Assembly (NCBI GenBank): GCA_039105265.1
Contig: JAPFFF010000007.1
Span: 4,588,001-4,652,000 of the forward strand
Direction: 5' to 3'
DNA from: Tritrichomonas musculus
Lineage: Eukaryota; Parabasalia; Tritrichomonadida; Tritrichomonadidae
Length of the DNA: 64,000 bases
Part shown: positions 15,488 to 36,339 of the stretch, one piece after another
Layout: each line of letters starts with the position of its first letter
How positions within the stretch are numbered: the first letter of the stretch is position 1
Notes under the pieces: model-generated
The model's database searches: none
Told to the model about the DNA's origin: nothing
What the model saw: only the letters and a program-made list of their open reading frames with translations
Position numbers and translations under genes: made by a program

Positions 15488-15508
15488 ATTGAATATTTTT
15501 TTGTCTAT

Positions 15509-16496: not shown

Positions 16497-16499
16497 TTA

Positions 16500-17543: not shown

Positions 17544-17558
17544 TTAATCGAAGCAAAA

Positions 17559-17870
17559 ATGTCCTTTCACTCACAAGTGAGTTCAACTTCGTCGGACTAC
17601 GTCCCCTTGCGTACGCAAGCGGCGGTGCCGAACTCTACGAGTTACGAACAAAAACGAACCATTCATGATGATAAAAGAATGAATCACTACGATAGATTAC
17701 AACTTAAAATGCAAAAAGAACGTACCAGAATTAATTCTGCACCAACTGTTAAGAAATATGAGGATAAAGGAAGTATTCAACATGAACCTCAAGTATCAAC
17801 AACAAAAAAATTGAATTTTCACACTTATTCATTAAATCATTCAGTTGTCCCTCGATGCGATAAAATCTAA
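17559..17870 (+). CDS. Small basic hypothetical protein
   Basis: 103 residues, Ser/Thr- and Lys/Arg-rich, with no recognised domain. The 5' end of the gene holds two of the short hairpins: GGAC/GTCC with loop TAC (17594..17604) and the perfect palindrome CTTGCGTACGCAAG (17606..17619). Residues 12-22 are therefore probably encoded by inserted hairpin sequence. Another hairpin, GCTTG/CAAGC at 17886..17897, follows the stop. Confidence 0.5.
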   Translation: MSFHSQVSSTSSDYVPLRTQAAVPNSTSYEQKRTIHDDKRMNHYDRLQLKMQKERTRINSAPTVKKYEDKGSIQHEPQVSTTKKLNFHTYSLNHSVVPRCDKI

Positions 17871-17905
17871 AATATTTATATTTTAGCTTGAGCAAGCTGC
17901 GAAAT

Positions 17906-18367
17906 CTAATCCAACATTTGTTGGTTAATATATTTGGCAATCTGATTTACAGTATTGGTTAATTCAGCAATTTTTTTATCTAATGTTGTGAATTTAAGTT
18001 CATAGCTTTGTTTCAAATCTTTAATCTCGTTATCAAAAGTTGACAAATTTTGTGAGAACATACTTTTGAGATTCTCAATATCTGCTTTAATAACATCTTG
18101 TTCAAGTTCTTTCAATTCATTAGTTTTGACAACTTTCTTTAAAAATATATCTCCCCCAACTCGTTTTGTACCTTCTTTTTGACAATTCTTTTTTGTGATT
18201 CTGTATTCAACACCATCTGGTGTAACAATTTTGTAAACCCGATTTAGATATTGAGTTGTCTGGTTGTTCATATCATCTTTGTGTTTCTGATAGTACAGAT
18301 TGAACTCCTCAATTGATTTAAAATTCTTTATTTCAGTAGTTATTTCATTAATTACTTTCAAATCCAT
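17906..18367 (-). CDS. Mav1 hypothetical protein with C-terminal coiled coil
   Basis: 153 residues. Residues 15-80 form a compact basic segment (QYLNRVYKIVTPDGVEYRIT, then KRVGGDIFLKKV) that could bind DNA or protein. Residues 85-150 are heptads (LEQDVIKADIENLKSMF, then LDKKIAELTNTVNQIAKYI). Family not recognised. It sits in the structural-gene block next to the capsid gene. Confidence 0.6.
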   Translation of the reverse strand: MDLKVINEITTEIKNFKSIEEFNLYYQKHKDDMNNQTTQYLNRVYKIVTPDGVEYRITKKNCQKEGTKRVGGDIFLKKVVKTNELKELEQDVIKADIENLKSMFSQNLSTFDNEIKDLKQSYELKFTTLDKKIAELTNTVNQIAKYINQQMLD

Positions 18368-18432
18368 TTAAAATAAAAAAATACAATTTAATCATTTTCA
18401 TGCGACTTCGAACACAAAGTGTTCTCAGGCAC

Positions 18433-18696
18433 TTATGTGACTTCATCAATTAAACTTTTACCAATTTTAAGACCTTTGTCAGCAAAATTTAATCCTGTAT
18501 CAATTGCTCTAACAGCATCACCAATAAGAGGTATTCCACCCAAAACAGGTTTTACCGCATTAGTTACTCTTTTACCAACTTCAACAACTTTGGGAAGTGC
18601 TTTACCAACCTTAGTTGCAACATTCTTAATTGTATTGCCTACAGATTTAAAAGCGTTTTTCATTTTTTTGAAGATTCCGATACCCATTGTTTTCAT
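18433..18696 (-). CDS. Small basic amphipathic virion-type peptide
   Basis: 87 residues. Lys-rich amphipathic helices (GIGIFKKMKNAFKSVGNTIK, NVATKVGKALPKVVEVGKRV) are followed by a Gly-rich hydrophobic stretch (VLGGIPLIGDAVRAIDTGL). The composition resembles membrane-active minor capsid peptides of non-enveloped dsDNA viruses such as adenovirus pVI/pX. I see no strict homology. Its start is 84 bp from the major capsid gene on the opposite strand. A penetration or DNA-condensing role is inference. Confidence 0.55.
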   Translation of the reverse strand: MKTMGIGIFKKMKNAFKSVGNTIKNVATKVGKALPKVVEVGKRVTNAVKPVLGGIPLIGDAVRAIDTGLNFADKGLKIGKSLIDEVT

Positions 18697-18779
18697 TACG
18701 AAAAAAGACCCATAATAGTACTTTTTTTGTTATTCATTCAAACTTCGTTTGAAAGTCTTTTTATTCCATAAAAAGTCAA

Positions 18780-20804: not shown

Positions 20805-20894
20805 ATTGAGATTTGATTTGAGATATTTTTTTTCTCGCAGAGCTCGAGCTCGCTTAAGAGCGAGATGCTTCTGAATTACCTTATTGTATTCGAA

Positions 20895-22277
20895 ATGTCA
20901 AAAACAAAATCTCTCAGAATTTATGATAAAGAATATCCTTCATTATTGAAATATCCATTCAAATCGAAATACAAATTTGTTGAAACTGATTTACAACCTG
21001 TTTTCAAGAATAACATTAAAACAGAACCTTTCATACCTGATTTCAAACTCAAAGCATGCAAAAAAATGTCAAAACCAAATTTCTCAAATGAACCAGGATG
21101 TTGGGAAGCCGATTTGATGTTCTCACATTATTATGCAGATGTTGAACATCCAATTAAACAAGAGCAAATCTATCTCGTTTTGATAAATGTGAATACTAGA
21201 TATCTAATTGTTGAACCAATGTCATACAAAAGTGAAATAACTCAAACTTTAAAACGAATTGTTGAAAAGAATCCTAAGTTTGAATTCAAGACAATCAAAT
21301 GTGATGGTGAATCTGGATTTGTTAGTTTAAAAGATGAATGTATTGTATTGAAAGATAATACAAAAGTAATTCTCAAAACAGATATCTCAAATGATTTACA
21401 AGTAGCATACAATTATAAACCTGAGTTAAGAAATCAAGTTAGAAATGAAATATTGTTCAATACTAATTTGAAAACGTTAATAGCATTTTTGAAAAAAAGT
21501 GGATATAAAAAAGTTATCAAGTCACCAATCTCAAAAATTGAGTTGAAAATTGACGATATCAATGATTATTATCCAGTCAAATTTGTAATTCAATCTTCCC
21601 CTTACGCTCTCGCTCATAAAAATGTTGATGCTGTAATTAGAACTATCAGAAATGCTTTTGGAATGGATAATCGAAGAATTGCTGATTATAATCTCATGAG
21701 ACAAATGGTGAACTTCTATAATAACACTCCTCACAATTCATTGAAATTTCGAAATTATGATTATAATGAAGATGAATTATCTGAATATCAAGGTTCTGGA
21801 TTGATTCCTCCAACTAAATGGATTTATTATTCTCCAGTTCATGTTCAAAATAATGTTGATTTGGAATGGAGGTATATTCGAATGATGAAAATGAAATTGA
21901 GAAAGATAAATGACAAACAGAAATTGAAAGGCTTACTCTCATACAAACGTGGTAACATTATTTTGGTACATCTTGATAAAGGTAAGACTCAAAAAAAGCA
22001 TGAAAAACGAAGACGTGTATTTAATGAAATAGCTGAGTTCATATGTTATCAAAACGGTAATGTTAAATTTAGATTGTTAAATCCATATCTCACATTTGAT
22101 AAGACAAAGGATGGTCTAGTTCCCTATGAGAAATCTGAGAAAGGTAGAATTGCCAAAACTGATGATGAGAAAGCAATTATTGAAGTCCCAATTATTTACA
22201 CGAAATATGTTTGTGATTCTATCGAAGACTTGAACGATGATTATAAACAGTATTTCATATTAAATGTTGACAAATGA
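20895..22277 (+). CDS. int: Retroviral-type integrase (rve fold)
   Basis: 460 residues from the ATG at 20895. An earlier in-frame ATG (20865) lies at the edge of a hairpin cluster (20840..20864) and is less likely. The core has D73 in CWEADLMF and D137 in IKCDGES. The third acidic residue is in HKNVDAVIRTIRNAFG (D245), where many retroviral-type integrases have Glu. The NFYNNTPHNSL block is typical of the family. The C-terminal part is Lys/Arg-rich (KTQKKHEKRRR) and may bind DNA. It joins element ends to the target with 6-bp staggered cuts, matching the ATGAAT and TTGGGT duplications. It overlaps the next gene by 14 bp. Confidence 0.88.
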   Translation: MSKTKSLRIYDKEYPSLLKYPFKSKYKFVETDLQPVFKNNIKTEPFIPDFKLKACKKMSKPNFSNEPGCWEADLMFSHYYADVEHPIKQEQIYLVLINVNTRYLIVEPMSYKSEITQTLKRIVEKNPKFEFKTIKCDGESGFVSLKDECIVLKDNTKVILKTDISNDLQVAYNYKPELRNQVRNEILFNTNLKTLIAFLKKSGYKKVIKSPISKIELKIDDINDYYPVKFVIQSSPYALAHKNVDAVIRTIRNAFGMDNRRIADYNLMRQMVNFYNNTPHNSLKFRNYDYNEDELSEYQGSGLIPPTKWIYYSPVHVQNNVDLEWRYIRMMKMKLRKINDKQKLKGLLSYKRGNIILVHLDKGKTQKKHEKRRRVFNEIAEFICYQNGNVKFRLLNPYLTFDKTKDGLVPYEKSEKGRIAKTDDEKAIIEVPIIYTKYVCDSIEDLNDDYKQYFILNVDK

Positions 22278-22641
22278 GATAAAAAAAGATGTTTACTCAA
22301 TGAAGCAACCAGTTACAAAACGCTATTTTCACACTCAAGATAAAGAATTTACTTTACCAAGTGAGTTTGTATCAAGTCGAAACAAGAAATTTATTGTTGT
22401 ACAGTATGTTGGAGCAATTGTTAAAGATACTCTTGTTGGAGATTTGATGGTACACTCTGATATTGTACAACAAGATGGTTATTGTGATTGTTTCATTATG
22501 TTAGCAAACAGACGTCAAACTAAATATCGAAAATATGAGTTTCTTGGTCATGAACGTAATTTTAAAATTTGGTTCACAGATTTATATGGGAACTCAATTG
22601 AACCATCTGCTTTTGTAATGAGTTGCCTATTAATCTTTTAA
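22264..22641 (+). CDS. Candidate minor capsid (penton-like) protein
   Basis: 125 residues, or 113 from the second Met at 22300. Beta-strand-rich sequence: KFIVVQYVGAIV, DLMVHSDIV, YCDCFIMLANRR, FKIWFTDLYGNSIEPSAFVM. The size and predicted all-beta character fit a single jelly-roll. It overlaps the integrase stop, which suggests tight co-expression. Assignment as minor capsid protein is inference from size and place. Confidence 0.5.
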   Translation: MLTNEIKKDVYSMKQPVTKRYFHTQDKEFTLPSEFVSSRNKKFIVVQYVGAIVKDTLVGDLMVHSDIVQQDGYCDCFIMLANRRQTKYRKYEFLGHERNFKIWFTDLYGNSIEPSAFVMSCLLIF

Positions 22642-22709
22642 ATAGGTTTTTTTGTTTGCCAGGCATCAAATAGCCATTTAGGCCTTATTATTTTTGTTCC
22701 AAATGAAAA

Positions 22710-23366
22710 ATGATACGTAAAACAAAGGATAAAAATAAAGAAGTATTAACAGCAGAACAAGAATCTAATTTAATTGATAAGGATGCTATTATTCTAGATA
22801 GAACTCACACATTATATTCATATATTGATAAAAAAGATAAGAAAGTTTACTTCTATTTGAGTAGTAATTATCAAGATTTATTTGTTTTTATGGAAGGTGA
22901 TAATATATTGTTAAATTTACCTAAGAAAGTTGATATGAATACAAAAATGAACATCTTAGATAATAAACGTCCTTATTTAAAAAGAAAATTTGTCATTTCT
23001 ATTGAAATTGGTTCCAAAATTGGAAATACGGATATTAAATTTGTTGAAAGATGGTTTGATGAACTAAATAAATCATATATTGTATTAATGGAAGATTGTG
23101 GATATAAATATGCTATTAAAGAAACAAATAATTTCTGTTTTGAATTAGATTCCGAAGGAGATGTAAATAGAAAAATCAAACCACTTCCGTTACACATATT
23201 TCTTTGTTTCAAACCTGAAACTTTTATGAATGAATGGAATCGTGTTGAATTACGAAATTTGGATGAGGAAGCTGATTTAAAAAAATTTAAATATGAATTT
23301 CAAAATTGGCATTACCATTTTCCTGTTATTAATGTATTTAAATCTAATTATGTAAGTCCATTTTAA
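22710..23366 (+). CDS. Mav1 hypothetical protein, possibly virion
   Basis: 218 residues, no recognised family. Alternating beta-type segments (VYFYLSSNYQDLFVFMEGDN, FVISIEIGSKIG) would fit a structural protein. It ends VSPF at a TTTTAA run; the +1 frame is open through this point into the next gene (NETPESLEPL then its Met). So the two may be one protein separated by a frameshift in the T run. About 70 bp with short complementary segments separates it from the gene upstream. Confidence 0.55.
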   Translation: MIRKTKDKNKEVLTAEQESNLIDKDAIILDRTHTLYSYIDKKDKKVYFYLSSNYQDLFVFMEGDNILLNLPKKVDMNTKMNILDNKRPYLKRKFVISIEIGSKIGNTDIKFVERWFDELNKSYIVLMEDCGYKYAIKETNNFCFELDSEGDVNRKIKPLPLHIFLCFKPETFMNEWNRVELRNLDEEADLKKFKYEFQNWHYHFPVINVFKSNYVSPF

Positions 23367-23394
23367 TGAAACTCCTGAAAGCCTTGAACCATTA

Positions 23395-23871
23395 ATGGAT
23401 ATTTCAGAAAATGATAATGATGGTAAATATGAAACAAGTAATGTCGATATCAATAATAAATATGATTATGATGAAATAAGACCTAAAAAAATAAATCCTC
23501 CAGTTCCATCTATGTTACAAGGTTTGGATAAAGAAGTCGAGAGTACGACTACAATGAAACCAGATGTTGAGACATTACCGAGCTCTATTTTCAGCAATGT
23601 ATCGACCTCAAATACATGGATGAAACCTCAAAGCTCTGTACAACAAAATCCTAATAACTTTAGTCCAATGAATTACTTTCAACCCACAACATTTAATATG
23701 CCAACAGGTACTAATTTTAATTTTAATACAGAGCCAAAAAAATCATCTTTAACTAGTGAAACAAATAATGCAACCAATGGAAACTTACCAAAGATTAATG
23801 AAAGTAAGTCAGAAAACAAACCAAAAACACATATATCAACTTTCAGATTACCAAAAAATAAAACAGATTAA
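23395..23871 (+). CDS. Disordered Asn/Ser/Thr/Pro-rich protein
   Basis: 158 residues of low-complexity sequence with Phe-containing repeats (PMNYFQPTTFNMPTGTNFNF), probably unstructured. It may be the C-terminal extension of the protein encoded just upstream, since its frame is open back into the end of that gene. It ends 8 bp before the convergent 849-residue gene. Function unknown. Confidence 0.5.
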   Translation: MDISENDNDGKYETSNVDINNKYDYDEIRPKKINPPVPSMLQGLDKEVESTTTMKPDVETLPSSIFSNVSTSNTWMKPQSSVQQNPNNFSPMNYFQPTTFNMPTGTNFNFNTEPKKSSLTSETNNATNGNLPKINESKSENKPKTHISTFRLPKNKTD

Positions 23872-23879
23872 ATATTTTT

Positions 23880-26429
23880 TTATGCTTCATTTTCATCTTC
23901 AGATTCATCGGATTCAACTTTAACATTAGCTAGTTTTTCATCAGTTCTTGATTTAATATATGTTTTGTCGCGATAATTATCATACATTGATTTATACAAA
24001 TTTTTAACTTCAATGTAATTTCCGCCAACTTTCGAATTAATATGTTTATCAATATTTGAACCAAATTGTTCTCGTAAATGTTTCTTTTCTTCTTTAGTCA
24101 CTTTATTTTCCAATATTTTCTGTGCTAATTGTGTAAATCGGTCTTTCTTTGATTCTGTATATCCAAGTCCAACGTTAGCTATTAGTTCAATTGTTTGAGT
24201 TAATATTTCTCCTAATCGTTCTGATATTTCAGCTTCACCATTTATTTCACCGCCAATTGGGATAACATCTTTCATATTAGTATTATAATCTTCTTGAATC
24301 ATAAGACCTAATTCAGAATTTACTGCTTTTGATTGTACTTTTTTATATTTAACCCATTCATTCCAATTATTACATTTATGTGATTTCATTACTTTCAATT
24401 CATATTGTAAAATAAATACAGCAGTACATATTTTTAAGTAACTGAATAAACACTTCAATGGTTCCAAAAATTGATAATCTACACTTTCTCCATCAATTAC
24501 AACTTCTCCTCCAAACATATTATAGAGTGCTAATTGCCATATTTTTGAAAAGATTGAACTCCATAATCCTCTTGCATTAAGTTTGGTGCTGACTTTGGGT
24601 TTAGATAAACCAACCTTCTGATAAGCATTAACTGCTTTAATGAAATCTCCATCATATTTAACATCGATTTTACCAGCATCCCATTGTTTTTGTTTATAAT
24701 TCCATGTTTTAGTAGTACCAGTAAGATTTTTCATCCATACTTCAAATGAATCATCTGTTTTACCAGCAATGCGTTCGGTTTGCCATAATTTCTTATAAGG
24801 GTCTGCTTTAACAAGACGGAATCCATTAATTATAACAGGTTTACCACGAGTGTCAACAATAACGATGTCCTCTACTTTGTCGCCATTTAAGTCACAAATT
24901 GGATTACCAAGAGGGTCTTTAGTGTCTCTCCTTGCAGGAATTAATCGATATAATGGATATCCATTTTTATCAAATTTCTTCTTACAATAGGCTTCTGCGC
25001 CATCTCTTGTAGCACATTTTGGAGAGAATTTAATACGATAATTACCATTAATAAGAATATCAAATAATTCCCCTCGGAATTTACTAACATCAATACTTTG
25101 TTTATTTTCGAAAATGTATAAGTCATTTAAACGTTTTTGTGAAGCTTCAAATGTTTTACCAGCACGTTTACCAGTTGGGACAGACTGCATATAATTGCTT
25201 TTGAATTCAGCAGTATCGATTGGAGATACACCTTTTGGTGATTCAATATTAACATTAAATAAATCTTCGTAGTTTTCAGAACTAAGTACAGGTTTTTTAG
25301 ATGGTGATTTAAATACAGGCTTTGACATTGATTTAGGAATGGAAAAATATTCATTATCAACATTATTATCGTCAGAACTTTGTGATTCACTATTCATGTT
25401 ATAAAATATTTCTCGGTCACCATTTTCGGTAATATACTTTATTAATTGTTTGAGCTTCTTTTTGTTTTTAGGCTCAGTTGTTTCTTCAAATATGTTTGTT
25501 TCGCGTATTGCATCATGTAATTGTAATACAAGTTTTTTTACTCTGATGTCAGAATCATCTTTGGGATTTATAGCTCGATTATAATAATCATAAAGGTTTT
25601 CAGCATTAAAATCATCGTTTAATAACCCAAATTTCTTAAGTTGATTAGCATCAATTGTAGAAGATTTATTGTAAGCATCTGATAATTGTTGACCTTCTTG
25701 ATTAGATTCTGCTATCTTTTTCATTGTTTCAATATTGGTTTTCCTTCTAATATTCTCAAATTGCAATAGGTTATTTATATTATCTGATGCCTCATTGTTT
25801 TTATGTGAGTCTATATTATTTGTCAATGATTTGACAAGTGATTGAATCTGTGCGGTATCTTTTTTATTGAATACTGAATACTTCTCTGAGTCATCAGCAA
25901 TACGATAAAATAATTGTAAAGCATTAATATGATTACTATCAAGTATAACTAAATCATTAAGTGATTCAATATCTTTATTAATTCGATTTCTGAAATAATG
26001 GTCTGCTAAATCGGGCTCCTCCTCCTCTTCAATTTGTGGAATGGAAACAGGTTTTTCTTCCTCCGCTTGTCGGAGGTCGCATTGCGCCCGAGACCTCCGG
26101 TCGAGGCTGCGAGAGCCCGCAGCTTTATTTTTCAGATAGTTGGTTAAATCAATAAAGTAATTCGCTTTTGAATCAAGTATTTTAGCTAATTCATTTTTTT
26201 GTCTTGAAGTTCCTTTAGGCTTTGCGTTATATTTATCAAGCATATCTTTTAAATTTGTTTTTACATCTTTGACATAGTTACGAGGATTCTTAAGATACTC
26301 AATAATATTACCAATAATTGTTGTTATTTGTGTTAACTTACTATTTTGGAACATGAATACGAGCATATCTTGATAGTCCCCTTTTTTTACTTCGTTTAGT
26401 ATGAAATCTTCGTTTATGTTTGTTATCAT
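23880..26429 (-). CDS. Large virion-type protein
   Basis: 849 residues. Asp/Asn/Lys-rich helical N-terminal half; a folded central part (about 485-700) with a DLNGDKVEDIVIVD loop, then GKPVIINGFRLVK and later hydrophobic helices (FLEPLKCLFSYLKICTAVFI); and an acidic tail. Large proteins with such a D-x-N-G-D block occur among structural genes of Maverick-like viruses, but I cannot name the family. Residues 103-123 are encoded by a GC-rich hairpin cluster (26060..26123) and look like an inserted, tolerated segment. Divergent from the fibre-like gene, with 14 bp between starts. Confidence 0.6.
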   Translation of the reverse strand: MITNINEDFILNEVKKGDYQDMLVFMFQNSKLTQITTIIGNIIEYLKNPRNYVKDVKTNLKDMLDKYNAKPKGTSRQKNELAKILDSKANYFIDLTNYLKNKAAGSRSLDRRSRAQCDLRQAEEEKPVSIPQIEEEEEPDLADHYFRNRINKDIESLNDLVILDSNHINALQLFYRIADDSEKYSVFNKKDTAQIQSLVKSLTNNIDSHKNNEASDNINNLLQFENIRRKTNIETMKKIAESNQEGQQLSDAYNKSSTIDANQLKKFGLLNDDFNAENLYDYYNRAINPKDDSDIRVKKLVLQLHDAIRETNIFEETTEPKNKKKLKQLIKYITENGDREIFYNMNSESQSSDDNNVDNEYFSIPKSMSKPVFKSPSKKPVLSSENYEDLFNVNIESPKGVSPIDTAEFKSNYMQSVPTGKRAGKTFEASQKRLNDLYIFENKQSIDVSKFRGELFDILINGNYRIKFSPKCATRDGAEAYCKKKFDKNGYPLYRLIPARRDTKDPLGNPICDLNGDKVEDIVIVDTRGKPVIINGFRLVKADPYKKLWQTERIAGKTDDSFEVWMKNLTGTTKTWNYKQKQWDAGKIDVKYDGDFIKAVNAYQKVGLSKPKVSTKLNARGLWSSIFSKIWQLALYNMFGGEVVIDGESVDYQFLEPLKCLFSYLKICTAVFILQYELKVMKSHKCNNWNEWVKYKKVQSKAVNSELGLMIQEDYNTNMKDVIPIGGEINGEAEISERLGEILTQTIELIANVGLGYTESKKDRFTQLAQKILENKVTKEEKKHLREQFGSNIDKHINSKVGGNYIEVKNLYKSMYDNYRDKTYIKSRTDEKLANVKVESDESEDENEA

Positions 26430-26443
26430 TTATTATTCCCAAA

Positions 26444-29215
26444 ATGTTCACGATAGAACAAGCGGGTACTATAAAAAAAGTAAATACAATTGATGAATTG
26501 ATAATAGAATATATTAAGAAATATGCTTGCCAATGCAATAACGGAAATAATTTAGGGTCAAGCTTGAATACTGAGGAATTGAAAGAATTATTAAAACCAT
26601 ATGCGAAGCTTACGAATCTTGATGAATATGCAAAGCTTACGAGCTTAAGCGAGTACGCTAAAGCGCAGGACTTACAGTCTTACGCGAAAACAACTGATTT
26701 ATTCGATTATTTGAAAACAGAGGAATTCAATAAAGAATTATTAAAGTATGCTAGTAGTGAAGAAATTGAAAACGCTGTTAATACATTACGTGATTACGTT
26801 GTTAACAACTTTGCATTATCAACTGACATACCTGAAATACCTACAGATTTGGTTAATGAATCTGCTTTATCAACTGCTTTGGAACCATATGCAAAGCTTA
26901 CGAACTTAAGTGAGTACACAAAGACTCAGGACTTGCCAGATATGACATTGTATGCAAAAAAAGAAGACATTCCAGAACCTGTTGATTTATCAAATTATGC
27001 TTTGACAACAGATATGACCCTTGCTATTGAGCAAGTGAAAAGCGAAATTCCAGAAATTATTGAGGGGCAAACAACTATTCAATTCAAAATCGTCAATAAT
27101 ACAATTCCTGATTTAGATTACAACACATATCATGAACTGATTGAGCAATATGGGTTGGATATTGTATCATCAGACAATTTCTATACGGCCCATTATGTTC
27201 ACGCAGACTATTCGTACAATGACGATGATGATAATCAACCCTCTCAGATACTGCGTATCGACGGAAGTAGTTCTGGTCTTTGGATACTGTATCACAGCCA
27301 TGAATTAATCAATCCAGGAACTGGTGATACACCAGAAATATTATCATGTTCAATAACCAAAACTATCGAACCAACAAACAAAAACATTTATTCGGCAAGA
27401 TATGTGTCAAACAATTATGCATTGAAAACAGATATCCCAGAACCAGTTGACTTGACACCATATTATTCTAGTGCACAAGCTGATGAGAAGTTTGTTGATG
27501 AAGATGAATTGGCTTATGAATTAGATAAGTATGCATTGAAAACAGATATACCAACAATTCCATCTGATTTGGTTAATGAATCTGCATTGAATACTGCATT
27601 ATACGGAACTGAATTGAATATTGAATATCCAGCAAAATTATATGACGGTGCATATATTACACCTCAGCTACCAAATGCTGACGTTCATTTGATATTTGAT
27701 GTTAATTGGGGTGATAATCAAGATGATGATATAGTGCATATTGATGTAATATTTAAACCAAATGGTTCTACTAGCACTTATGACAGCATGGACAGGTATG
27801 ATAGCAATGGCAAACGCATTGATAGAATAATATGGCGTTATGATGATGGACAAATTGTATATGTATCATATATTGCAGCACATAGAAATAATAATCCAAT
27901 AGCATACAATTTCATTAGAGCTCAAATCGAATCGCCATTCATTAAAACCGCAAATGTTGCTGATGAGAATCCAGAACGAATCACAATTCAATGTACACAG
28001 AATGATAGCGGTTGTGCAATCCCAGATGAATATATAAGAAGAGTATTAACAACCAAAAATATTCTCGTGAAGTTCAAACGAAATGCCGATGATGCGACAT
28101 ATGAAGAAGCTGAATACGAATATTCTGGACGAAAGAGTGCAAATCTCATATACAAATCAACCAGCGGAGAGTCAAGTGAATTGATAGATATTCGTGTAGC
28201 TACACGTATTGTTTCATTGAGAGCTGAGGATGATACACTAACCAATATTTATGATGCAACTATCACATTAATCAGCATCCGACCTGTGAATGATGATATG
28301 ATTACTTCGGTGAAATATGTGAATGATAACTTTGCACTGAAGTCAAACGTCATAACAGAAGAACAACTAATAAAAAAATGTGCTATTGATTGCGGACCGA
28401 TTACAGAGGGCGGTGAAATATCAATTCATTATCTAAAACTTGAAGATAAGGTAATTAAACTGGAATATATAGTAGGTGATTATGCGCTATGTTTGGAAAT
28501 AAGAATATTATTCTATGATACAACTGGAAATCCTCATAACATTGTTCTTGTATTACATCAAAGAACTGTGTATTTCGACAATTTCAAATTCCCATTCTAT
28601 TATGAAGACACTGTTGATATAACATCAGGAAGACCCCTGACATATAATTTCCCAATAGGCGGATATTCTTGGACAACTACTCAGGAATTATTAGATGCTA
28701 AACAAATATATTCAAGATGCATCATGTCCCGAGGTTATTTAGCAAAATATAAGGGTGTGATGTACGGTACATCAAACACAACAATCACTCATTACTCCCC
28801 AATCGAGTCATCAATGAACTCTATTAATGATTTCGTTATTGGAGCTCCAGTATATATGACTGGTAAGGTTTATAAACATGTTGGTGATGAATGGAAACCA
28901 TCAACAGCAGATGATACAACTGATTGTATTTGTAGTGTCAAAACATCAGGAACATGGAAGGAGTATGTTGGTATATGTGTGAGAATCGATGACAAAAATA
29001 AATGTATCACATTTAGTTCACATGGTGATTATCTTTTGAAAGTTAATGATTCTTCATGTTATTCAATCGGGGATGAAGTGTTTATAGATAATGAAGACAA
29101 TAAGTTGAAAGTTCTTTCAGGAGAGACAGCAATAACATCAAAAATAAAACGCATGACTGTCGGAATCATAACTGCAATAATAGATAATAAAACACTTGCA
29201 TGCTTTAAGGCATAA
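26444..29215 (+). CDS. Fibre-like / receptor-binding protein
   Basis: 923 residues from ATG 26444; an ATG at 26420 would overlap the divergent gene. The first 230 residues hold repeats of a short unit like LTNLDEYAKLTSLSEYAK plus LSTDIPEIP-type spacers, the style of trimeric tail-fibre stalks. Several beta-rich domains follow, punctuated by recurring SARYVSNNYALKTDIP-type joints. The C-terminal 200 residues (GAPVYMTGKVYKH, SVKTSGTWKEYVGICV) look like a beta-barrel knob. Likely mediates attachment of Mav1 particles; this is inference from repeat architecture. Confidence 0.7.
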   Translation: MFTIEQAGTIKKVNTIDELIIEYIKKYACQCNNGNNLGSSLNTEELKELLKPYAKLTNLDEYAKLTSLSEYAKAQDLQSYAKTTDLFDYLKTEEFNKELLKYASSEEIENAVNTLRDYVVNNFALSTDIPEIPTDLVNESALSTALEPYAKLTNLSEYTKTQDLPDMTLYAKKEDIPEPVDLSNYALTTDMTLAIEQVKSEIPEIIEGQTTIQFKIVNNTIPDLDYNTYHELIEQYGLDIVSSDNFYTAHYVHADYSYNDDDDNQPSQILRIDGSSSGLWILYHSHELINPGTGDTPEILSCSITKTIEPTNKNIYSARYVSNNYALKTDIPEPVDLTPYYSSAQADEKFVDEDELAYELDKYALKTDIPTIPSDLVNESALNTALYGTELNIEYPAKLYDGAYITPQLPNADVHLIFDVNWGDNQDDDIVHIDVIFKPNGSTSTYDSMDRYDSNGKRIDRIIWRYDDGQIVYVSYIAAHRNNNPIAYNFIRAQIESPFIKTANVADENPERITIQCTQNDSGCAIPDEYIRRVLTTKNILVKFKRNADDATYEEAEYEYSGRKSANLIYKSTSGESSELIDIRVATRIVSLRAEDDTLTNIYDATITLISIRPVNDDMITSVKYVNDNFALKSNVITEEQLIKKCAIDCGPITEGGEISIHYLKLEDKVIKLEYIVGDYALCLEIRILFYDTTGNPHNIVLVLHQRTVYFDNFKFPFYYEDTVDITSGRPLTYNFPIGGYSWTTTQELLDAKQIYSRCIMSRGYLAKYKGVMYGTSNTTITHYSPIESSMNSINDFVIGAPVYMTGKVYKHVGDEWKPSTADDTTDCICSVKTSGTWKEYVGICVRIDDKNKCITFSSHGDYLLKVNDSSCYSIGDEVFIDNEDNKLKVLSGETAITSKIKRMTVGIITAIIDNKTLACFKA

Positions 29216-29240
29216 ATAGTATAAAAAAAATTTTTTTAGC

Positions 29241-29645
29241 TTAATTGTTGGATGAGATTATTTGAATCAGCTTTCCCGTCATGTATAACGATAAATTGAT
29301 ATTTAATTGTTCACGAATTAGATTCTGAAGGAATTGAATTCGATTAGACCTTGGTTGATTCATAATTGTTTCTTTATGGTCAGAAGCAAATTGAAGAACT
29401 TGGTCTCTCTGTTCATCATTTAAAAACTTCGATTTGTTTAATGGAAATGAGCGATTTGTTCTTCTTCGTATAGGATTTAATTCATTTGATTCGGCTGAAG
29501 GTTCGGCACTTTGTGCCTCAGCCGAGCTTTGCTCGGATTCAATTTGTGTTTCATTTGGTTGTTCAGTTGATATATTATTTAATTGTTCGAATTCGGTTTT
29601 CAAAGCAAGTAATTCAGAAATGATATGGTCGATGCGTTGTTGCAT
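29241..29645 (-). CDS. Mav1 hypothetical protein with hairpin-encoded insert
   Basis: 134 residues from the Met at 29645. Short coiled coil (MQQRIDHIISELLALKTEFE), then a low-complexity SAEAQSAEPSAE segment encoded by two hairpins (GGCAC/GTGCC with loop TTT at 29505..29517; CCGAGC/GCTCGG with loop TTT at 29522..29536). A basic folded C-terminus (RTNRSFPLNKSKFLNDEQRD) follows. No family known. It starts close to the right terminal repeat. Confidence 0.55.
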   Translation of the reverse strand: MQQRIDHIISELLALKTEFEQLNNISTEQPNETQIESEQSSAEAQSAEPSAESNELNPIRRRTNRSFPLNKSKFLNDEQRDQVLQFASDHKETIMNQPRSNRIQFLQNLIREQLNINLSLYMTGKLIQIISSNN

Positions 29646-29682
29646 TTTTAAATAAGATAAAAAAAACAAATTCTTAATTTAA

Positions 29683-29946
29683 AATTTTATAACTTGTTCT
29701 CAGATTCATTCTGGAGCCCTTATTTAAATTTTAAATCCCGAATTAACTTTGAAATAAATTTTAAAATGAGTGTTTAGCGCTTTATGACAGGCCTTGTTCT
29801 ACAACAGATTATGGAGGCTAATTAAAATTTAAACCCTGTGGATAAGTTTTTCGTTAATTTTCAAAATGAGGTTTTGAGCTTGGTTCCTGGTATTGGGAGA
29901 CCTAGAAAAATTATTCGACCACCAATACGAACATACATATACTACT
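29683..29946 (-). repeat. Mav1 right terminal inverted repeat
   Basis: Reverse complement of 7493..7756, same length, no clear mismatch on reading. Followed by the duplicated ATGAAT at 29947..29952. It creates an open frame running into the Mav2 polymerase fragment, which is incidental. Confidence 0.9.
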
Positions 29947-31618
29947 ATGAATTCGAAAAATCAAATCTCAAGAAAATTGAACAAAAAGAAATTCATGATA
30001 AATCACATTTACTTGAATATTACATTCCTGAAAACGAAGAATTATATGAATATCTTGATAAATTCAATCATAAATTTAAATCAAAACACAATGATTATCT
30101 TATGATTAATGAACCACATGATTTTGATAAAGCAGTTGAGGTTTGGGATTATTATACCAAATATGATAAAGATTATGTTGATAAAGAGGAATACAATGGC
30201 TCCCCAATTGTTATTTATTATTTCAATCAAATCTCATCATTAAATCAAATCTTCGAATCATTGCAACAAGTATTTGATAGAGAACTAAAACCATTCAAAA
30301 TTCATTTCCAATTATCTGGTGTATTTGAAACTCCTGTTCATGATTTGGAGAATGAAGAAAAGGACCATTTCGAATATGAAGCACGAAATATTAATTGGAA
30401 AAATTATCAATCTACAATTCCTATAATAATATCATCATTACAGGACCTTGATTATGTTAAAATGTATATTGAATCGAATCTCAATTCATATGAAACATCA
30501 ACTTCATCAACTAAATTAACAATCGTTGGTTCAATTTCATTTACTGTCTCACGAATGCGAAAGGTTACTGGACATATTAAAGATTTACCAATTGAATTTT
30601 TAAGAAGTGAATGCATTATTGCTGACAATGAAGATGATAAATTATGTTTCTACCGATTTTTAGCAATCTGTTTGAGTGATATCATAATTGTAAATAATGT
30701 TGAAATACATAAACTTGCATATACTCAAAAATATCAAATAAAGGAACGAACTAAGGTTGCTAAAAAAATACTTCACAAAGAACATAATATTGAATATAAC
30801 ACCAAAATTCCATCAAAAGGATTAAATATTCTCAAAGAATTCATAGGAGTAACGATGGAACAAATGGAAGAATTGGCTAAAAAGCATCATCTAAATATCA
30901 ATATTTATGAGTTCACTAAAACTGATAATTCTTCATATTATGACTTATCTGAACAATGGTTTTTCGATAAATCTTATCCAACTCATTCTGCATTACTTTT
31001 CTCGAAAGACCAAATTATTCATATCATGTATATTAAGAATCCTGAAAAACTAACTCAAATACATATTTGTCCAAAATGTCATTCATACACTCATCGTGGA
31101 CCTAAAAATATGTTTAGATTTGAATCTCATGTCAAACATTGTGATGGTGTCTTCAAGAAGAACTTTATTCCAAACAAGGAACCACTTCCATTCTGTCCAC
31201 ATATCTTAAACAATCCAGTTTATGAATATTGTTTGGCATATGATTTAGAATGGAAACCTAACATTTATTATATGACATACGATTTTGAAACGATGGAACA
31301 ATCAGTTAACAAATCGATTTCTGATTCAACTGTAATCAATTCACGATTAATACCTCTTTCAGTTGCTTCATGTGTTAAATTATCTTCAGGATTAATTACT
31401 AAACATTTCTCATTAAAGGATTCTGAAGAGTTTATTCCAGAATGGATTTCATGGTTGTTCGAACAATCGATGGAAGTACTGAATGATAAAATTAAATATG
31501 ACAAATCATTTCTCCCTGCTGATAAAATTTATGATATTGATACAAATATTTATACCATAACCGTTTTCGGATTTAATTCCTCAAGATTTGATTCTAATAT
31601 GTTCAAGAAATATCTTAA
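29947..31618 (+). pseudogene. polB: Mav2 DNA polymerase B, middle fragment
   Basis: Continues the frame of 6892..7492 after the Mav1 insertion. It covers the region equivalent to Mav1 polymerase residues about 240-788: the possible Cys/His protease-like region (DDKLCFYRFLA, THSALLF), the CPKC zinc-finger-like motif, and exonuclease motifs I (YDFETME) and II (NSSRFDSNMF). Most blocks match Mav1 closely; others (around 30340-30440) differ. It stops where R2 begins, so the HNH insert and all polymerase motifs are lost. Confidence 0.85.
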
Positions 31619-31946
31619 TCATAAAGGGTCCCAACGAAAAGTGCGAAACGAAGTTCTGCGGTAATAATTTAATAAATAATTTTATAAATTAATTTAGCCA
31701 ATCCAAACGTAGTTTGGCTGAGGAACAGCCCTTCGGGCCTGAGGCACTTTGTGCCGAACAAAGTTCCGAATCTGTTTGTACAATCTGTTAGAAAATCGAT
31801 TATACAAGCCAATTAGCAAATCGATTATACAAACCAATTAACAATCGAATTACCAAACGAATTAACAAATCTAATTAGCAAATCGATTAACAAACGAATT
31901 AATAAAATTATTAATAAAATTATGTTTAAAAAGCGATTTGTAAAAC
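31619..31946 (+). repeat. R2 left inverted repeat with hairpins and iterons
   Basis: Three parts: an outer AT-rich segment; hairpins CCAAAC/GTTTGG with loop GTA (31703..31717), GCCC/GGGC, GGCAC/GTGCC (31743..31755) and GAAC/GTTC; then a direct-repeat array to about 31920. The Rep-like gene begins at 31922 inside the repeat. It has 25 bp more than the right copy, the length of two array units. Confidence 0.85.
31793..31920 (+). promoter_or_regulatory. Iteron-like array, candidate R2 origin
   Basis: About ten consecutive 12-13 bp units of the form AAATCGATTAAC or AAACGAATTAAC, directly before the Rep-like ATG. The mirror copy lies at about 35902..36006. Tandem iterons beside a Rep gene are the classic layout of Rep-controlled replication origins. 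The array is visible; origin function is inferred. Confidence 0.6.
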
Positions 31947-34618
31947 GATTCCGCATTTTTATCCAAACGAAATCCATGCAAAACGAAAACTGCGGTATAA
32001 AAGAATTCGATTATCGATTTAAAGAATCTAAGCCAACAATTACGCTTCCAATTAATTACTTCTCTGTTAAATCCAAAACCAAACCAGAAACCTTACTTTA
32101 CAACATTAATGTCCAAGTTAACTCTTGCGATACTTCCAACATCGATTTTACATCTGGTGGCACAAATAATAATACATTTAAACCTCTATCCAAACGCTTC
32201 TGCGATAATATTATCTTATATTTCGAATTACCTAAAGAAAAGATTAACAACAATAAGGTATTGCAAGAATATGTAAACAAAGCAGATAAAACAAATTCTA
32301 AAGAATCTATTGGCTAATCCTAGCTTCGCTCGCTCGGGACACGAAGTGTCGAATCCAAACAAAGTTTGGATGATGAACGGCCCTTCGGGCCTGAGGCACT
32401 TTGTGCCGAAGCTTGTTCCGAATCTGTTAACAGTAGTACAGAAACAACAGATAACACAGATTCCGATACATGGATAAACAAACTTCTTAAAGAAATTGCA
32501 CCATTCCTTGCCGAAAATACTGAGAAGATTAAACGAATCTTTAATACATTGGGTATCTCGATTAACAAAACACATATTAAGCCAACTCGTCCAGCATACG
32601 AAAACAATACAATTCGACAATATATTAAGGTCTCTTTACCAGATATCGATATCGAATTAATTTACAATCTAATTACTAATGCAACTGTAATCGATGTTCT
32701 AAACAAAGAAGGAATATTTATACACGATATCGATTTTACACAAGACTTCCAAGGCGTTATTAACAAAGAATCTGTTATAAATTATTTGTTGCAACAGCCT
32801 AATTTCCGAATGCAAGGAGACCAAATAGAGGAAATAGAATTTCCAGAAGAAACATGTACCATATTATCTAACGATTGCTTTGTTGGAAAAAATTGTTTAA
32901 CATTTATTACGAAATCTAATTATGGAACAGTTCGATATAAATTCTACAACAAATTTGTCCAGTCTATCGAATCTCCTTCTGTTCGAGGTAAGGTCGGAAA
33001 CCATTATTCGGATTGGATAGATAATCCAGAACAAATATTAAGAGAAAGTATCTCTAAATGTGTCGAAACAGGTTTATTACGCTTAGAGATAACATTCTAT
33101 ATCCAAAATTGTGCTGTAACACAAGATTATATAAATAAACATCTCGATTATCTTACAAACTTACTTCCACCTAACTTGTTATATTACAATAGTATTCCAA
33201 ACCAATGGAAACTTATCCAATCTGCTATTAAATATAATTTATTAATTCTGGATTTAGATAACAATCTTGGTTTGTACTCCTATTCGATAAACAAATGTAC
33301 CAAAAAAATTAATGGTTTCTTTATTAAAGACATCTCGACAAACAAGATTAGCAATCTAATTAAACTATATTCGTTTAACACTCCGATTATTGTTCTATCT
33401 ATTAGAAGAAGTTTCAATAATCTATTAATCCAACAAACAACTTTGGAAAAGAAATTAACAAATAATGTCGATAAACGATTTGTAATGGAAGAATTAGAAA
33501 CTTATCTTACAACTGGCTCTAAATACTTCTTTCCAAAGAAATCGTTAAACGCAAATCCAGAAACTACTGGGCTAATCGATTCTCCAATCGTTCGTCTCCG
33601 AACACAACGTTCCAAATGTATTGGTAAACTTATTACAGGGCACGTTCCTATAATCTTACGAGAAATCGATAACATTCCATTAGAGTTTCCAAACGATAAA
33701 GTAACAACGATTGCAAAAAAATATAAAGAAGAACAATCGGAGAAACTATTTATCGAATCTAATAAAGACCTAATCGAAACTCTAAACAAAGAAAATAATA
33801 AAACTAAAGAATCTGCTGCACAAGAACAACTGGAACTAATACGTAAAAGAGAAGAACTATTGGCAATAAAAGAGAAGGAAGCCAAACTTCTAAACCACAT
33901 TATAGAATCGTTCGACATCCCACATTCCAATAAAAAGAAGCTAATCGAATTACCAGATAAAGCACATTTGTATATCTATGCTATTAAATTTATTACAACC
34001 AAGTATGGGAATACAGTACTTATCGCAACCAGCACCCAAACATCGATTTCAACAGAATCCCCATTAGATGTATATTGGGGCGTTAAGAGTATACTGGATT
34101 ACACAAATTTACATAAAGAAATGTGGCAAATATTAGATTATAATATGTATGGTTCTGCTTTCGGGAGGCCAATTATGGAAATCGAGAAGGATGGCTTCTA
34201 TTACAACAAGAGTCGAAACAAATGCGCTCTAATTAATGTTGTAGATTGTAAAGAAACAAGTGGAGAAGCATTTGTACACTCCGAATTAACAGAAATTACG
34301 ATAAAGAGAATATTAATGGAGGAATTACCAGAAAACGAATTTCTATTAAAACACACATATATTAACACTAAATCGGATAAAATAGACAATCTTGTTAAGG
34401 AAGGAGATGTTATCGAAGTATTTAATACATTCTCTTATCGCAATAGTAATCTAATAGAATTTAAAATAAGGGGTAAGGAGGATATTATATCTGCTAAGAG
34501 TAACAAGTTTCTAGACGATATTATCGTTGGGAAAGAGAATATATTCTCTGTTGTAGCTGGTATAGTTAAGACACATCCTGTTTCCAAACGGAAATGTATT
34601 TCGTTTAAAGGAGCTTAA
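31922..34618 (+). pseudogene. R2 Rep-like/accessory fusion gene with two in-frame stops
   Basis: Reads 131 residues from ATG 31922, meets TAA (32315..32317) and TAG (32321..32323), then continues in the same frame to 34618. The N-terminal piece and the first part of the long piece align with the intact R1 Rep-like protein; R1 has no insertion at this point. The stops and the next 100 bp are a cluster of hairpins, so a hairpin insertion probably broke the gene. Conserved blocks: HDIDFTQDFQGVI, GKNCLTF, RYKFYNKF, QSIESPSVRGK, GLLRLEITFY. A coiled coil (about 33710-33900) leads to the accessory domain (YGSAFGRPIMEI, VVAGIVKTHP), separate in R1. An ATG at 32366 could allow a truncated product. 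Confidence 0.7.
32321..32428. repeat. Hairpin cluster inside the R2 Rep-like gene
   Basis: Consecutive hairpins: GACAC/GTGTC with loop GAA (32338..32350), TCCAAAC/GTTTGGA with loop AAA (32354..32370), GGCCC/GGGCC with loop TTC (32379..32391), GGCAC/GTGCC with loop TTT (32395..32407). The last part, through CCGAATCTGTT, closely matches the same module in the R2 terminal repeats. The equivalent R1 gene lacks it. Confidence 0.85.
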
Positions 34619-34677
34619 TTAGAATTAATTTTCGATAATTAATTTTAAAGATAAAGATATTTTTTTATATGTAACTA

Positions 34678-34971
34678 ATGGGGAACGTTTGTAAATATAA
34701 TTTGGAGCACATGGACGATATCTGCAAATACGCAAGATACACTAAATACGAGCAATTTGGTATTGTTGTAATCGATTTTATAAATCGAGATGTTATCGCT
34801 TGTTATACTAAAGAGACTGGTGTAATACTACTTTACAAAACAAAACAAGACAATTGTTCTAAAAAAACATTTCCAAAAGGATATCTTGGTAAATATAAGA
34901 CAATCTATTACAATCCATCTTACAATACAGATGGAATATTAATGTCGACATCTTGTTTTGGCATAAATTAA
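34678..34971 (+). CDS. R2 small protein, homologue of the split R1 gene
   Basis: 97 residues. The C-terminal half (TFPKG, GKYKTIYYN, DGILMSTS) aligns with the 86-residue R1 protein split by Mav2. Conservation between two elements, in opposite orientations relative to Rep, supports a real gene. Function unknown; predicted beta-rich. Confidence 0.6.
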   Translation: MGNVCKYNLEHMDDICKYARYTKYEQFGIVVIDFINRDVIACYTKETGVILLYKTKQDNCSKKTFPKGYLGKYKTIYYNPSYNTDGILMSTSCFGIN

Positions 34972-35043
34972 CGCAAATAAGTGTATAACACATTTATTAC
35001 ATAAACCATTACATTATGCATTTTTTTGTTCCCAAATATCGAT

Positions 35044-35349
35044 ATGGAAAGCTATTTCGACGCAGTCGGAGGAGCAGAAAGCGATTCTTATAATTATTCG
35101 GACCACGTAGACGGCGAATATACAGACAATAACGATTTATGGCAAGATTGTGTAGAAAATATGCTTCGAAACATATTGGAGAAACAAATTAATAAGCTTA
35201 TCGAGGGTAATCTACCTAAAGAGATAATGGAGCAGCTACTTGTTTTAAAAGAGAATTTTAAAAGAAAAGTTTGCACACAAGATTTAGAAGAAAGACTGTA
35301 CAACATTTGTAAACAAATTTGCAAGCTAGATGCACAATATTATTCTTAA
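35044..35349 (+). CDS. R2 small acidic protein
   Basis: 101 residues from ATG 35044; the longer frame would need a TTG start. Acidic N-terminus (YFDAVGGAESDSYNYSDHVD), then helical segments with heptad spacing (ENMLRNILEKQINKLIEGNL) and a Cys-containing C-terminal helix (LYNICKQICKLDAQYY). No family recognised; a small helical regulator or adaptor is possible. Confidence 0.5.
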   Translation: MESYFDAVGGAESDSYNYSDHVDGEYTDNNDLWQDCVENMLRNILEKQINKLIEGNLPKEIMEQLLVLKENFKRKVCTQDLEERLYNICKQICKLDAQYYS

Positions 35350-35383
35350 ATAAGTTATTATATAAGTGTTTTTTTATAACCAA

Positions 35384-35857
35384 ATGGATGCTGCGAGCCC
35401 TCGCTACCTCCGACAAGCGGAGGATAAAATGGAAGAACAAATGGAACAACAACAAACGGAGGAAGAATTAAATAACAAAAATTTACAAAACAATATTACA
35501 GAAGAAGAATTTCGAGATGCACTTAACAAAATTGGTGCTTACAGAACAAATATGTCCCAAAAAAGAAGAGCTAATTGGAACGCTTATATGCGAAAATACA
35601 ATGCAAGAAAGAAAGCGGAACGCGAACAAAAAGAGAAGGAAATAAGTCTGCAATTTAATAAATCTTATAAATCTTACGATAAAGAGGATGTTAATAAATG
35701 TTTATCGGACTGTATTCGTGTTCTAACATCGATTCTAAACAGAAATATAGAACGTATACCGCAATATCGAATAGACCAAATTAATAAAGAAGCAAATAAT
35801 CGAGATATGTTAGACTATATAAATGCACTAATGGATACTGTAAAGAAATTATTGTAA
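35384..35857 (+). CDS. R2 helical basic protein
   Basis: 157 residues from ATG 35384; the upstream extension would need a GTG start. The first 12 residues are encoded by a hairpin (CCTCCG/CGGAGG with loop ACAAG, 35407..35423) also found reverse-complemented in the Mav1 849-residue gene (26060..26076). The middle is highly basic and helical (MSQKRRANWNAYMRKYNARK), suggesting nucleic-acid binding. The C-terminus is helical (CLSDCIRVLTSILNRN). Ends 20 bp before the right inverted repeat. Function unknown. Confidence 0.55.
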   Translation: MDAASPRYLRQAEDKMEEQMEQQQTEEELNNKNLQNNITEEEFRDALNKIGAYRTNMSQKRRANWNAYMRKYNARKKAEREQKEKEISLQFNKSYKSYDKEDVNKCLSDCIRVLTSILNRNIERIPQYRIDQINKEANNRDMLDYINALMDTVKKLL

Positions 35858-35876
35858 ACAACTTTCTTTTTTTAGA

Positions 35877-36179
35877 GTTTTACAAATCGCTTTTTAAACA
35901 TAATTTTATTAATAATTTTATTAATTCGTTTGTTAATCGATTTGCTAATTAGATTTGTTAATTCGTTTGGTAATTCGATTGTTAATTGGTTTGTATAATC
36001 GATTTTCTAACAGATTGTACAAACAGATTCGGAACTTTGTTCGGCACAAAGTGCCTCAGGCCCGAAGGGCTGTTCCTCAGCCAAACTGCGTTTGGATTGG
36101 CTAAATTAATTTATAAAATTATTTATTAAATTATTACCGCAGAACTTCGTTTCGCACTTTTCGTTGGGACCCTTTATGA
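35877..36179 (-). repeat. R2 right inverted repeat
   Basis: Reverse complement of the left repeat apart from one substitution and the absence of 25 bp. It includes the hairpin module and a shorter iteron array (about 35902..36006). It joins the outer Mav2 terminal repeat directly. Confidence 0.85.
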
Positions 36180-36339
36180 CAGGCCTTGTTCTACAACAGA
36201 TTATGGAGGCTAATTAAAATTTAAACCCTGTGGATAAGTTTTTCGTTAATTTTCAAAATGAGGTTTAGAGCTTGGTTCTTGGTATTGGGAGACCTAGAAA
36301 AATTATTCGACCCGCCATTCCTAACATACATATACTACT
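36172..36339 (-). repeat. Mav2 right terminal repeat, outer part only
   Basis: 168 bp matching the outer end of the left Mav2 repeat with a few substitutions, ending CATATACTACT. The inner part, from the CGCTAAACAC block onward, is missing and replaced by R2. Followed by TTGGGT at 36340..36345. Confidence 0.85.

What the first reader, a model, noticed from the sequence alone, without database searches (positions are those of the whole stretch)
31619..36179. R2: an apparently undescribed Rep/iteron/inverted-repeat element lodged in a Maverick
Seen: 303-328 bp near-identical inverted repeats; a 12-bp iteron-like array inside each; a Rep-like gene starting one base after the array; three further small genes on the same strand. 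No transposase, integrase or polymerase is present. Inference: a small replicon that could replicate from iterons with its own Rep and be carried by Mavericks, comparable in lifestyle to transpovirons or satellites. I cannot match the Rep-like protein to a named family.
Basis: partly seen in the sequence, partly recalled or inferred. Interest (0 to 1): 0.87.

Follow-up and report, generated by a model that had tools for sequence, protein, structure and literature searches.

The report
Rep-bearing satellite wearing Maverick ends
A small mobile element of a mouse-gut protist, built around its own unfamiliar 'Rep-like' gene, appears to spread by taking on the end sequences of larger virus-like elements (Mavericks), so that their machinery probably inserts it into the genome.

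Summary
The window lies in the Tritrichomonas musculus genome. R2 (31619-36179) is real and recurrent: its terminus occurs 16 times, twelve of them in six complete pairs 4.6-4.9 kb apart. It is not a simple insertion in a Maverick. All 16 termini are joined to the end regions of Mavericks (about 160 to 3300 nt; 14 of 16 reach the Maverick terminus). All six complete copies end in 5'-AGTAGT and sit in exact 6-bp target duplications, so the composites existed before they integrated. The R2 side of the join is always the same base. The Maverick side varies, but an uninterrupted allele reads TCA exactly there in 10 of 12 joins (chance about 6e-14). Two copies have identical cores and right ends but different left ends. 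A second Rep lineage shows the same architecture with another helper family at C38. Rep is under purifying selection (3 pairs, dN/dS 0.10-0.15); the window copy is broken. The protein matches no known family; comparison with Rep_trans is not significant. Best reading: a Rep-encoding satellite that captures helper ends at TCA and is integrated in trans. Shown: architecture, duplications, TCA joins. Inferred: free linear stage, joining chemistry, Rep function.

The parts
6545..36339 (.). Composite element M1: Maverick-type terminus, truncated polymerase-like gene, R2 core, Maverick-type terminus; interrupted by the inner Maverick at 7493-29946
   Evidence: Ends 5'-AGTAGTATATG at both sides with TSD TTGGGT (6539-6544 and 36340-36345); uninterrupted site in L070
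7493..29946 (.). Complete-looking 22.5-kb Maverick nested inside M1 (reference for the helper's ends)
   Evidence: Matching terminal repeats, TSD ATGAAT; uninterrupted allele in L012
31619..36179 (+). R2 core
   Evidence: Precise terminus TCATAAAGGGTCCC at both ends; 16 occurrences in the genome, reversed control pattern 0
31619..31946 (+). Left inverted repeat of the core, containing the start of the long gene
35877..36179 (-). Right inverted repeat of the core
31799..31906 (.). 12-bp array in the left repeat (iteron-like; function untested)
35917..35999 (.). 12-bp array in the right repeat
31922..32317 (+). First part (131 aa) of the broken Rep-like gene of this copy
32366..34618 (+). Second open part of the Rep-like gene (ATG at 32810, 602 aa)
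   Evidence: intact 853-aa homologues in L010, L011, L012
32318..32430 (.). Hairpin-rich stretch within the Rep-like gene, of which 32352-32428 repeats 31700-31776
34678..34971 (+). Small gene, 97 aa, no family
35044..35349 (+). Small gene, 101 aa (139 aa in L010-L012), no family
35384..35857 (+). Small gene, 157 aa, no family
31619..31621 (+). Left join, TCA: polymerase-like gene of a Maverick to the left, R2 to the right
   Evidence: The closest uninterrupted allele (L012) reads TCA here; the inner Maverick's allele shares only T
36172..36179 (-). Right join, TCATAAAG read inward: 8 nt shared by the R2 end and the Maverick terminal repeat
36180..36339 (-). Right cap: 160-nt Maverick terminal segment
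29953..31618 (+). Inner part of the left cap: truncated Maverick polymerase-like gene, continuing 6892-7492
2680..6368 (+). Relics of other members of the Rep-like family (2680-4368, 4399-4941, 5808-6368) beside M1
   Evidence: 2749-5098 is 75% like the Rep region of L073; 6110-6544 is 97% like L070, which holds the uninterrupted M1 site

Best explanation
R2 is the core of a satellite of Mavericks. It carries its own Rep-like protein and three small proteins but no recognised integrase or polymerase. Outside the chromosome it exists as a DNA with defined ends (5'-TCATAAAG...). Its 3' end (...CTTTATGA-3') is joined to Maverick DNA at a TCA triplet, and everything from there to the Maverick's terminus becomes its new end. 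Either the 3' end pairs with TCA on exposed Maverick strands and is extended to the Maverick terminus, or the Rep-like protein cuts and joins there. The second end is capped independently, or is copied from the first through the inverted repeats, which would explain the symmetric copies. With (AGT)2 helper ends the composite can be used by the helper's protein-primed replication and integrase, and is inserted with the helper's target duplication. Shown: fixed core ends, variable helper segments, TCA at most joins, 6-bp duplications flanking the whole composites, the same kind of join in a second Rep lineage with another helper. Inferred: the free stage, the joining chemistry, helper-driven replication and integration, packaging, and Rep's biochemical role.
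For: 16 of 16 R2 termini are flanked by Maverick end-region sequence in the same orientation, terminus side outward; 14 of 16 reach the terminus. 6 of 6 complete copies have an exact 6-bp TSD around the composite: TTGGGT, CAAGTC, AACCTT, AACAAT, AAGGAT, AACGAA, so the composite predates integration. TCA lies exactly at the join in uninterrupted alleles at 10 of 12 joins; with p = 0.032 per site, P = 6e-14 (9 of 11 distinct sites: 2e-12). L011 and L012: 4583-bp cores 100% identical and the same 239-bp right cap, but the left caps are the right end of one Maverick and the left end of another, at different target sites. Symmetric copies with total terminal repeats of 531-636 bp, 96.7-100% identical: L009, L010, L013. 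Second lineage (C38, with Rep): core TCATAAGACCC joined to another family's terminal segments at two positions; TCA read directly in the uninterrupted sequence at one and inferred from match coordinates at the other. Two further loci with this core end and cap (C10, C22) have 5-bp duplications, as has C17, a 22.9-kb copy of that helper. Rep dN/dS 0.10-0.15 in 3 of 3 pairs among L009, L010, L011.
Against: No free form was sought or could be sought here. 2 of 12 joins (L014, L016) do not show TCA in the alleles at hand; the inner Maverick's own allele at window_L shares only 1 nt, and at L009 fifteen alleles are offset by one T. The single termini L016 and L017 lack the outermost ~110 and ~175 nt of the Maverick end in the match, and L014's cap is interrupted by about 2 kb. 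C38, the copy with Rep, shows only 4 matching flanking bases (GTTG); C10 and C22 have no Rep match in the capped list; a presumed C5 pair shows no duplication. The 20-kb Rep palindromes (5-bp duplications, 9 of 9 read) have one constant cap. Rep, and also the helper's polymerase-, integrase- and capsid-like genes, have no Pfam or PDB support: the name Maverick rests on ends, duplications, size and motifs seen by eye. Whether C17 is a Maverick was not tested.
Confidence: 0.6

Rival explanations
1. R2 is an independent transposon that inserts at TCA in Mavericks; the Maverick interiors were later lost by deletion.
For: Precise R2 ends and a short target preference are typical of transposons; every flank is Maverick DNA.
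Against: The two flanks are never the two sides of one site in 6 of 6 complete copies; the triplet is inverted at the two ends (TCA...TGA), not a direct duplication; none of the six complete copies lies in a continuous Maverick. The four single termini do not bear on this.
Confidence: 0.15
2. R2 is simply a non-autonomous Maverick deletion derivative (mini-Maverick): its coding region was picked up once, and its ends were later shuffled with other Mavericks by gene conversion.
For: Maverick ends and 6-bp duplications throughout; terminal repeats are homogenised.
Against: Conversion would not be expected to stop at the same R2 base at 11-12 different Maverick positions, mostly at TCA; it does not explain caps from opposite Maverick ends on identical cores, nor the same architecture in a second Rep lineage with another helper.
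Confidence: 0.14
3. Composites are by-products of host end joining between linear DNAs, without any satellite function.
For: Short homology at the joins; this genome holds many Maverick copies (147 candidate places for one terminal segment).
Against: The 16 R2 ends found are not trimmed (the search itself required the terminal 27 nt, so trimmed ends would be missed); the homology is the terminal TCA in 10 of 12; the Rep-like gene stays under purifying selection between copies (dN/dS 0.10-0.15).
Confidence: 0.11

Closest known systems
Bidnaviridae (origin proposed in PMC4061559; passages read)
   Same: A small viral genome that acquired Polinton terminal repeats; there from a parvovirus ancestor, the endonuclease being absent today.
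   Different: There a single ancient event inferred from relatedness, with the polymerase gene kept. Here the joins are recurrent, partly recent and readable to the base, with the Rep-like gene kept and the polymerase-like gene truncated or absent.
Transpovirons of Mimiviridae (PMC3671162 and PMC7031253; passages read)
   Same: Small linear elements with 380-520-nt terminal repeats and a few genes, carried by larger viruses.
   Different: Transpovirons encode a helicase and, as far as I recall, keep their own ends. No helicase was recognised in R2.
Maverick/Polinton elements (PMC8097293; passages read)
   Same: (AGT)2 end motif, terminal inverted repeats, 6-bp target duplications.
   Different: The R2 core has no recognised polymerase, integrase, ATPase or capsid gene.
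Non-autonomous DNA transposons (MITE-like; recalled)
   Same: Use of another element's integration machinery through shared ends.
   Different: R2 codes for several proteins, one clearly under selection, and the shared ends are acquired at a fixed triplet, not inherited by deletion.
Adeno-associated virus and its adenovirus helper (recalled)
   Same: A Rep-encoding element of about 4.7 kb dependent on a larger protein-primed DNA virus.
   Different: AAV does not wear adenovirus ends; no capsid gene was recognised in R2.

Membership tests
Maverick/Polinton | (AGT)2-type termini | tested here: met
   5'-AGTAGT at both ends of 6 of 6 complete composites
Maverick/Polinton | 6-bp target site duplication | tested here: met
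   6 of 6
Maverick/Polinton | PolB, integrase, packaging ATPase and capsid genes in the element | tested here: not met
   None recognised in the R2 core; the window composite keeps only a truncated polymerase-like gene
Rep_trans (PF02486) replication initiators | Profile match | tested here: not met
   No Pfam match at any useful score; no PF02486 match in the genome; best hhalign P 0.016 with 12 sequences (2 of 60 shuffles as high), P 0.057 with 25 (at least 6 of 100 shuffles as high)
Rep_trans (PF02486) replication initiators | Motif order xDx[AT]xD, YxK, RxE | tested here: inconclusive
   Conserved in both families in the same order; by eye, no significance attached
HUH endonuclease Rep | Conserved HxH motif | tested here: not met
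   No HxH among the invariant and nearly invariant columns of 41 relatives; one nearly invariant H
Rep-type replicon | Rep-dependent replication from iterons | not testable with these tools
   12-bp arrays present, no functional test
Transpoviron | Helicase and zinc-ribbon genes, linear episome | tested here: not met
   No helicase or zinc ribbon in any R2 gene by Pfam; episome not testable
Satellite of a helper element | Integration signature of the helper without encoding its integrase | tested here: met
   Maverick ends with 6-bp duplication in 6 of 6 R2 composites and in the inner Maverick. For the second helper: 5 bp at C10, C22 and C17, but 4 bp at C38, the copy shown to hold Rep
Satellite of a helper element | Replication or packaging depends on the helper | not testable with these tools
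   -

The most novel reading that the evidence does not exclude
A family of Rep-encoding satellites in trichomonads that live by end capture: a fixed core end, TCATAA(A)G, is joined at TCA to whatever protein-primed virus-like element is replicating. The satellite thereby swaps helpers and integration machinery, repeatedly and recently. The Rep-like protein would be a new class of replication and end-joining enzyme.
Probability: 0.45. Interest if true: 0.93.

Novelty: new variant of a known kind. Interest (0 to 1): 0.84.

Why it matters
Small satellites are known for phages and giant viruses (recalled), but none was found described for Mavericks in the searches made. Here the step by which a satellite adopts a helper can be read to the base, many times, in one genome, including two identical cores that differ in one acquired end. 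That makes the kind of recombination proposed for the origin of bidnaviruses (small virus genome plus Polinton ends) directly testable. It also argues that trichomonad Mavericks pass through an extrachromosomal DNA stage, because the composites formed before they integrated.

Tried and rejected
Rep identity. Pfam, PHROGs, NCBIfam and PDB sequence searches gave nothing usable; the phage and plasmid collections, IMG/VR and GTDB gave none (the last two start from short peptide patterns). The only named relatives are T. musculus proteins; the others are unnamed metagenome proteins (66 and 47 hits, scored from the 8000 best candidates). Comparison with Rep_trans looked promising with 12 sequences and weakened with 25; it is reported as not significant.

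Ideas dropped: R2 as a plain insertion in a Maverick (flanks not continuous); R2 as a transposon with a 3-bp duplication (the triplet is inverted, not direct); R2 as the inner part of a Maverick repeat (11-12 different helper breakpoints for one R2 base). The 20-kb Rep palindromes were examined as a possible autonomous form: in the left half and centre read, the only long ORF is the 826-aa Rep-like gene; the other ORFs over 100 aa are 105-118 aa and lie antisense to it, across the terminus, in repeats or outside. They are described but not explained. The wish to show that C17 encodes Maverick proteins failed (search unanswered). Family searches for the inner Maverick's own proteins supported only a KilA-N gene.
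Full report
Setting. The window is G000:C7:4588001-4652000 of a 193-Mb genome. The Rep-like protein of two other R2 copies in this genome is 100% identical to a record named Tritrichomonas musculus, a mouse-gut parabasalid.

The observation. The arms (31619-31946, 35877-36179) are 92% identical. The long gene starts at 31922 inside the left arm. In this copy it is broken into 131- and 602-aa ORFs around a hairpin-rich stretch; three other copies have an open 853-aa frame, one has 915 aa with extra sequence, and L013 is broken too.

It is a family. The left repeat matches 22 places among the candidates scored. The 27-nt terminus occurs 16 times with up to 3 mismatches, 8 on each strand, against 0 for the reversed control pattern. 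Twelve of these form six pairs: the window, C12 (L009), C10 (L010), two on C58 (L011, L012) and C4 (L013). Four are single (L014-L017). Cores are 4561-4856 bp long and 89-100% identical.

What surrounds it. A complete-looking 22.5-kb Maverick at 7493-29946 (ends 5'-AGTAGT, duplication ATGAAT) gives the reference ends. Its long gene carries B-family polymerase motifs, recognised by eye from recalled motifs; Pfam and PDB searches support none of its polymerase-, integrase- or capsid-like genes, only a KilA-N protein. All 16 R2 termini are preceded by Maverick end-region sequence with the terminus side outward. Distances from the Maverick terminus to the join, in reference coordinates or locus lengths: window 2676 and 160; L009 272 and 272; L010 195 and 195; L011 1312 (right Maverick end) and 238; L012 about 3295 (left end) and 238; L013 356 and 356. 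So 14 of 16 reach the terminus.

Composites integrated as units. Outer ends are AGTAGT in 6 of 6 complete copies, with exact 6-bp duplications: window TTGGGT, L009 CAAGTC, L010 AACCTT, L011 AACAAT, L012 AAGGAT, L013 AACGAA. The uninterrupted site of the window composite exists in L070, and that of the inner Maverick in L012. So the joins were made before integration. (AGT)2 ends and 6-bp duplications are among those reported for vertebrate Mavericks (PMC8097293, passages read), where the repeated end motif is linked to the jumping-back step of protein-primed replication.

The joins. For each of 12 joins (identical partners counted once) the nearest uninterrupted alleles among the loci in hand were compared, at most eight allele classes printed per join. 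In 10 of 12 an allele reads TCA exactly where R2 begins with TCA; window_R shares 8 nt, TCATAAAG. Against the reading: L014 and L016 are not resolved; at window_L only the L012 allele shows TCA while the inner Maverick's shows T; at L009 fifteen alleles are offset by one T and some classes stop earlier; at L013 one allele class reads CCA; at L015 and L017 (the same helper site) only some alleles show it. TCA makes up 2.8-3.2% of positions in the Maverick, so 10 of 12 has a chance of 6e-14, and 9 of 11 distinct sites 2e-12. The search for R2 ends needed the terminal 27 nt, so trimmed R2 ends would have been missed.

Recent events. L011 and L012 have 100% identical 4583-bp cores and identical 239-bp right caps, but different left caps and target sites. 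In L009, L010 and L013 both caps are the same and the total terminal repeats are 606, 531 and 636 bp at 100, 99.8 and 96.7% identity, as expected if one end is copied onto the other.

A second lineage. The Rep-like protein has further relatives in the genome (71 matches, best candidates only). One, at C38, is a near-palindrome whose core begins TCATAAGACCC on both sides. Its caps are about 337 and 779 nt of another family with ends 5'-AGTAGATG. The uninterrupted sequence of the shorter join reads TCA in L073 itself. For the longer join, other copies match through the TCA by coordinates only. Other copies of that core end start within about ten bases of the same point. Duplications next to this cap: 5 bp at C10 and C22 (core end present, no Rep match in the capped list), only GTTG at C38, none at a presumed C5 pair. 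C17, a 22.9-kb pair of these ends without a listed Rep match, has a 5-bp duplication, TATCC. Duplication length therefore seems to follow the cap, on few cases.

A third lineage forms 20-kb palindromes with two copies of an 826-aa Rep-like gene and satellite arrays, ends AGTAGTATATACG, and 5-bp duplications in 9 of 9 pairs read. Most copies start at the same point, but seven more diverged matches (84%) begin about 24 nt further out. TCATAAAAG lies 60 nt inside the end. They have one constant cap, so they neither support nor contradict repeated capture.

The protein. It has 66 relatives in one search and 47 in a second, many on contigs under 6 kb. Among 41 aligned relatives the conserved motifs include DIDFTxD, YNKF and LRLEITFY. 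Rep_trans proteins show RxDxAxD, RxYxK and RxE in the same order, but profile comparison is not significant. Purifying selection is clear for Rep (3 of 3 pairs, dN/dS 0.10-0.15). For the 139- and 151-aa genes it shows in comparisons with L013 (ratios 0.21-0.26) and not in the close comparisons, where ratios run from 0.45 to above 2 on few changes; the 117-aa gene gives 0.51 in its one pair.

Mechanism. The architecture requires that an R2 DNA with intact ends met Maverick DNA outside the chromosome, and that DNA from a TCA to the Maverick terminus was added. Priming of the R2 3' end on Maverick strands, or cut-and-join by the Rep-like protein, both fit; the data do not separate them. Literature: Maverick-type DNA is put at 34% of the Tritrichomonas foetus genome (PMC10120064, passages read). 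Searches for Tritrichomonas with Maverick or polinton, T. musculus with transposable elements, polinton with satellite, and transpoviron terms listed no paper that by title and abstract describes such elements.

Noticed in passing
window 31700-31776, 32352-32428; parts near 27940-27958 and 29505: A GC-rich multi-hairpin unit recurs in this AT-rich genome, in repeats and inside genes. In L009 the Rep-like gene carries a copy at this place and stays open (915 aa); in the window copy the gene is broken there. Reminiscent of palindromic elements that insert in genes.
   Followed up: partly
L070-L072 (C2:5546019-5566443) and eight further pairs: About 20-kb palindromes with two inverted copies of an 826-aa Rep-like gene, large satellite arrays in the middle and 5-bp target duplications (9 of 9 read); other copies lie on short contigs.
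   Followed up: partly
window 7493-29946 within 6545-36339: Nesting: a full-size Maverick inside an R2 composite inside sequence shared with a Rep palindrome; uninterrupted alleles for both insertions exist in the genome.
   Followed up: yes
window 7799-12676: The Maverick polymerase-like gene (1625 aa) contains a Cys/His stretch resembling an HNH endonuclease (by eye), and has no Pfam match at cut-off.
   Followed up: no
window 13386-14165: KilA-N domain protein (Pfam E 6e-22) inside the Maverick.
   Followed up: no
window 38989-47379 minus strand: 2796-aa predicted protein with serine/proline/threonine repeats and an HExxH-like stretch (by eye), possibly M60-like.
   Followed up: no
window 36728-36880: Eight copies of a 19-bp repeat right beside the composite; 36477-36771 is 99% like L071 of a Rep palindrome.
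   Followed up: partly
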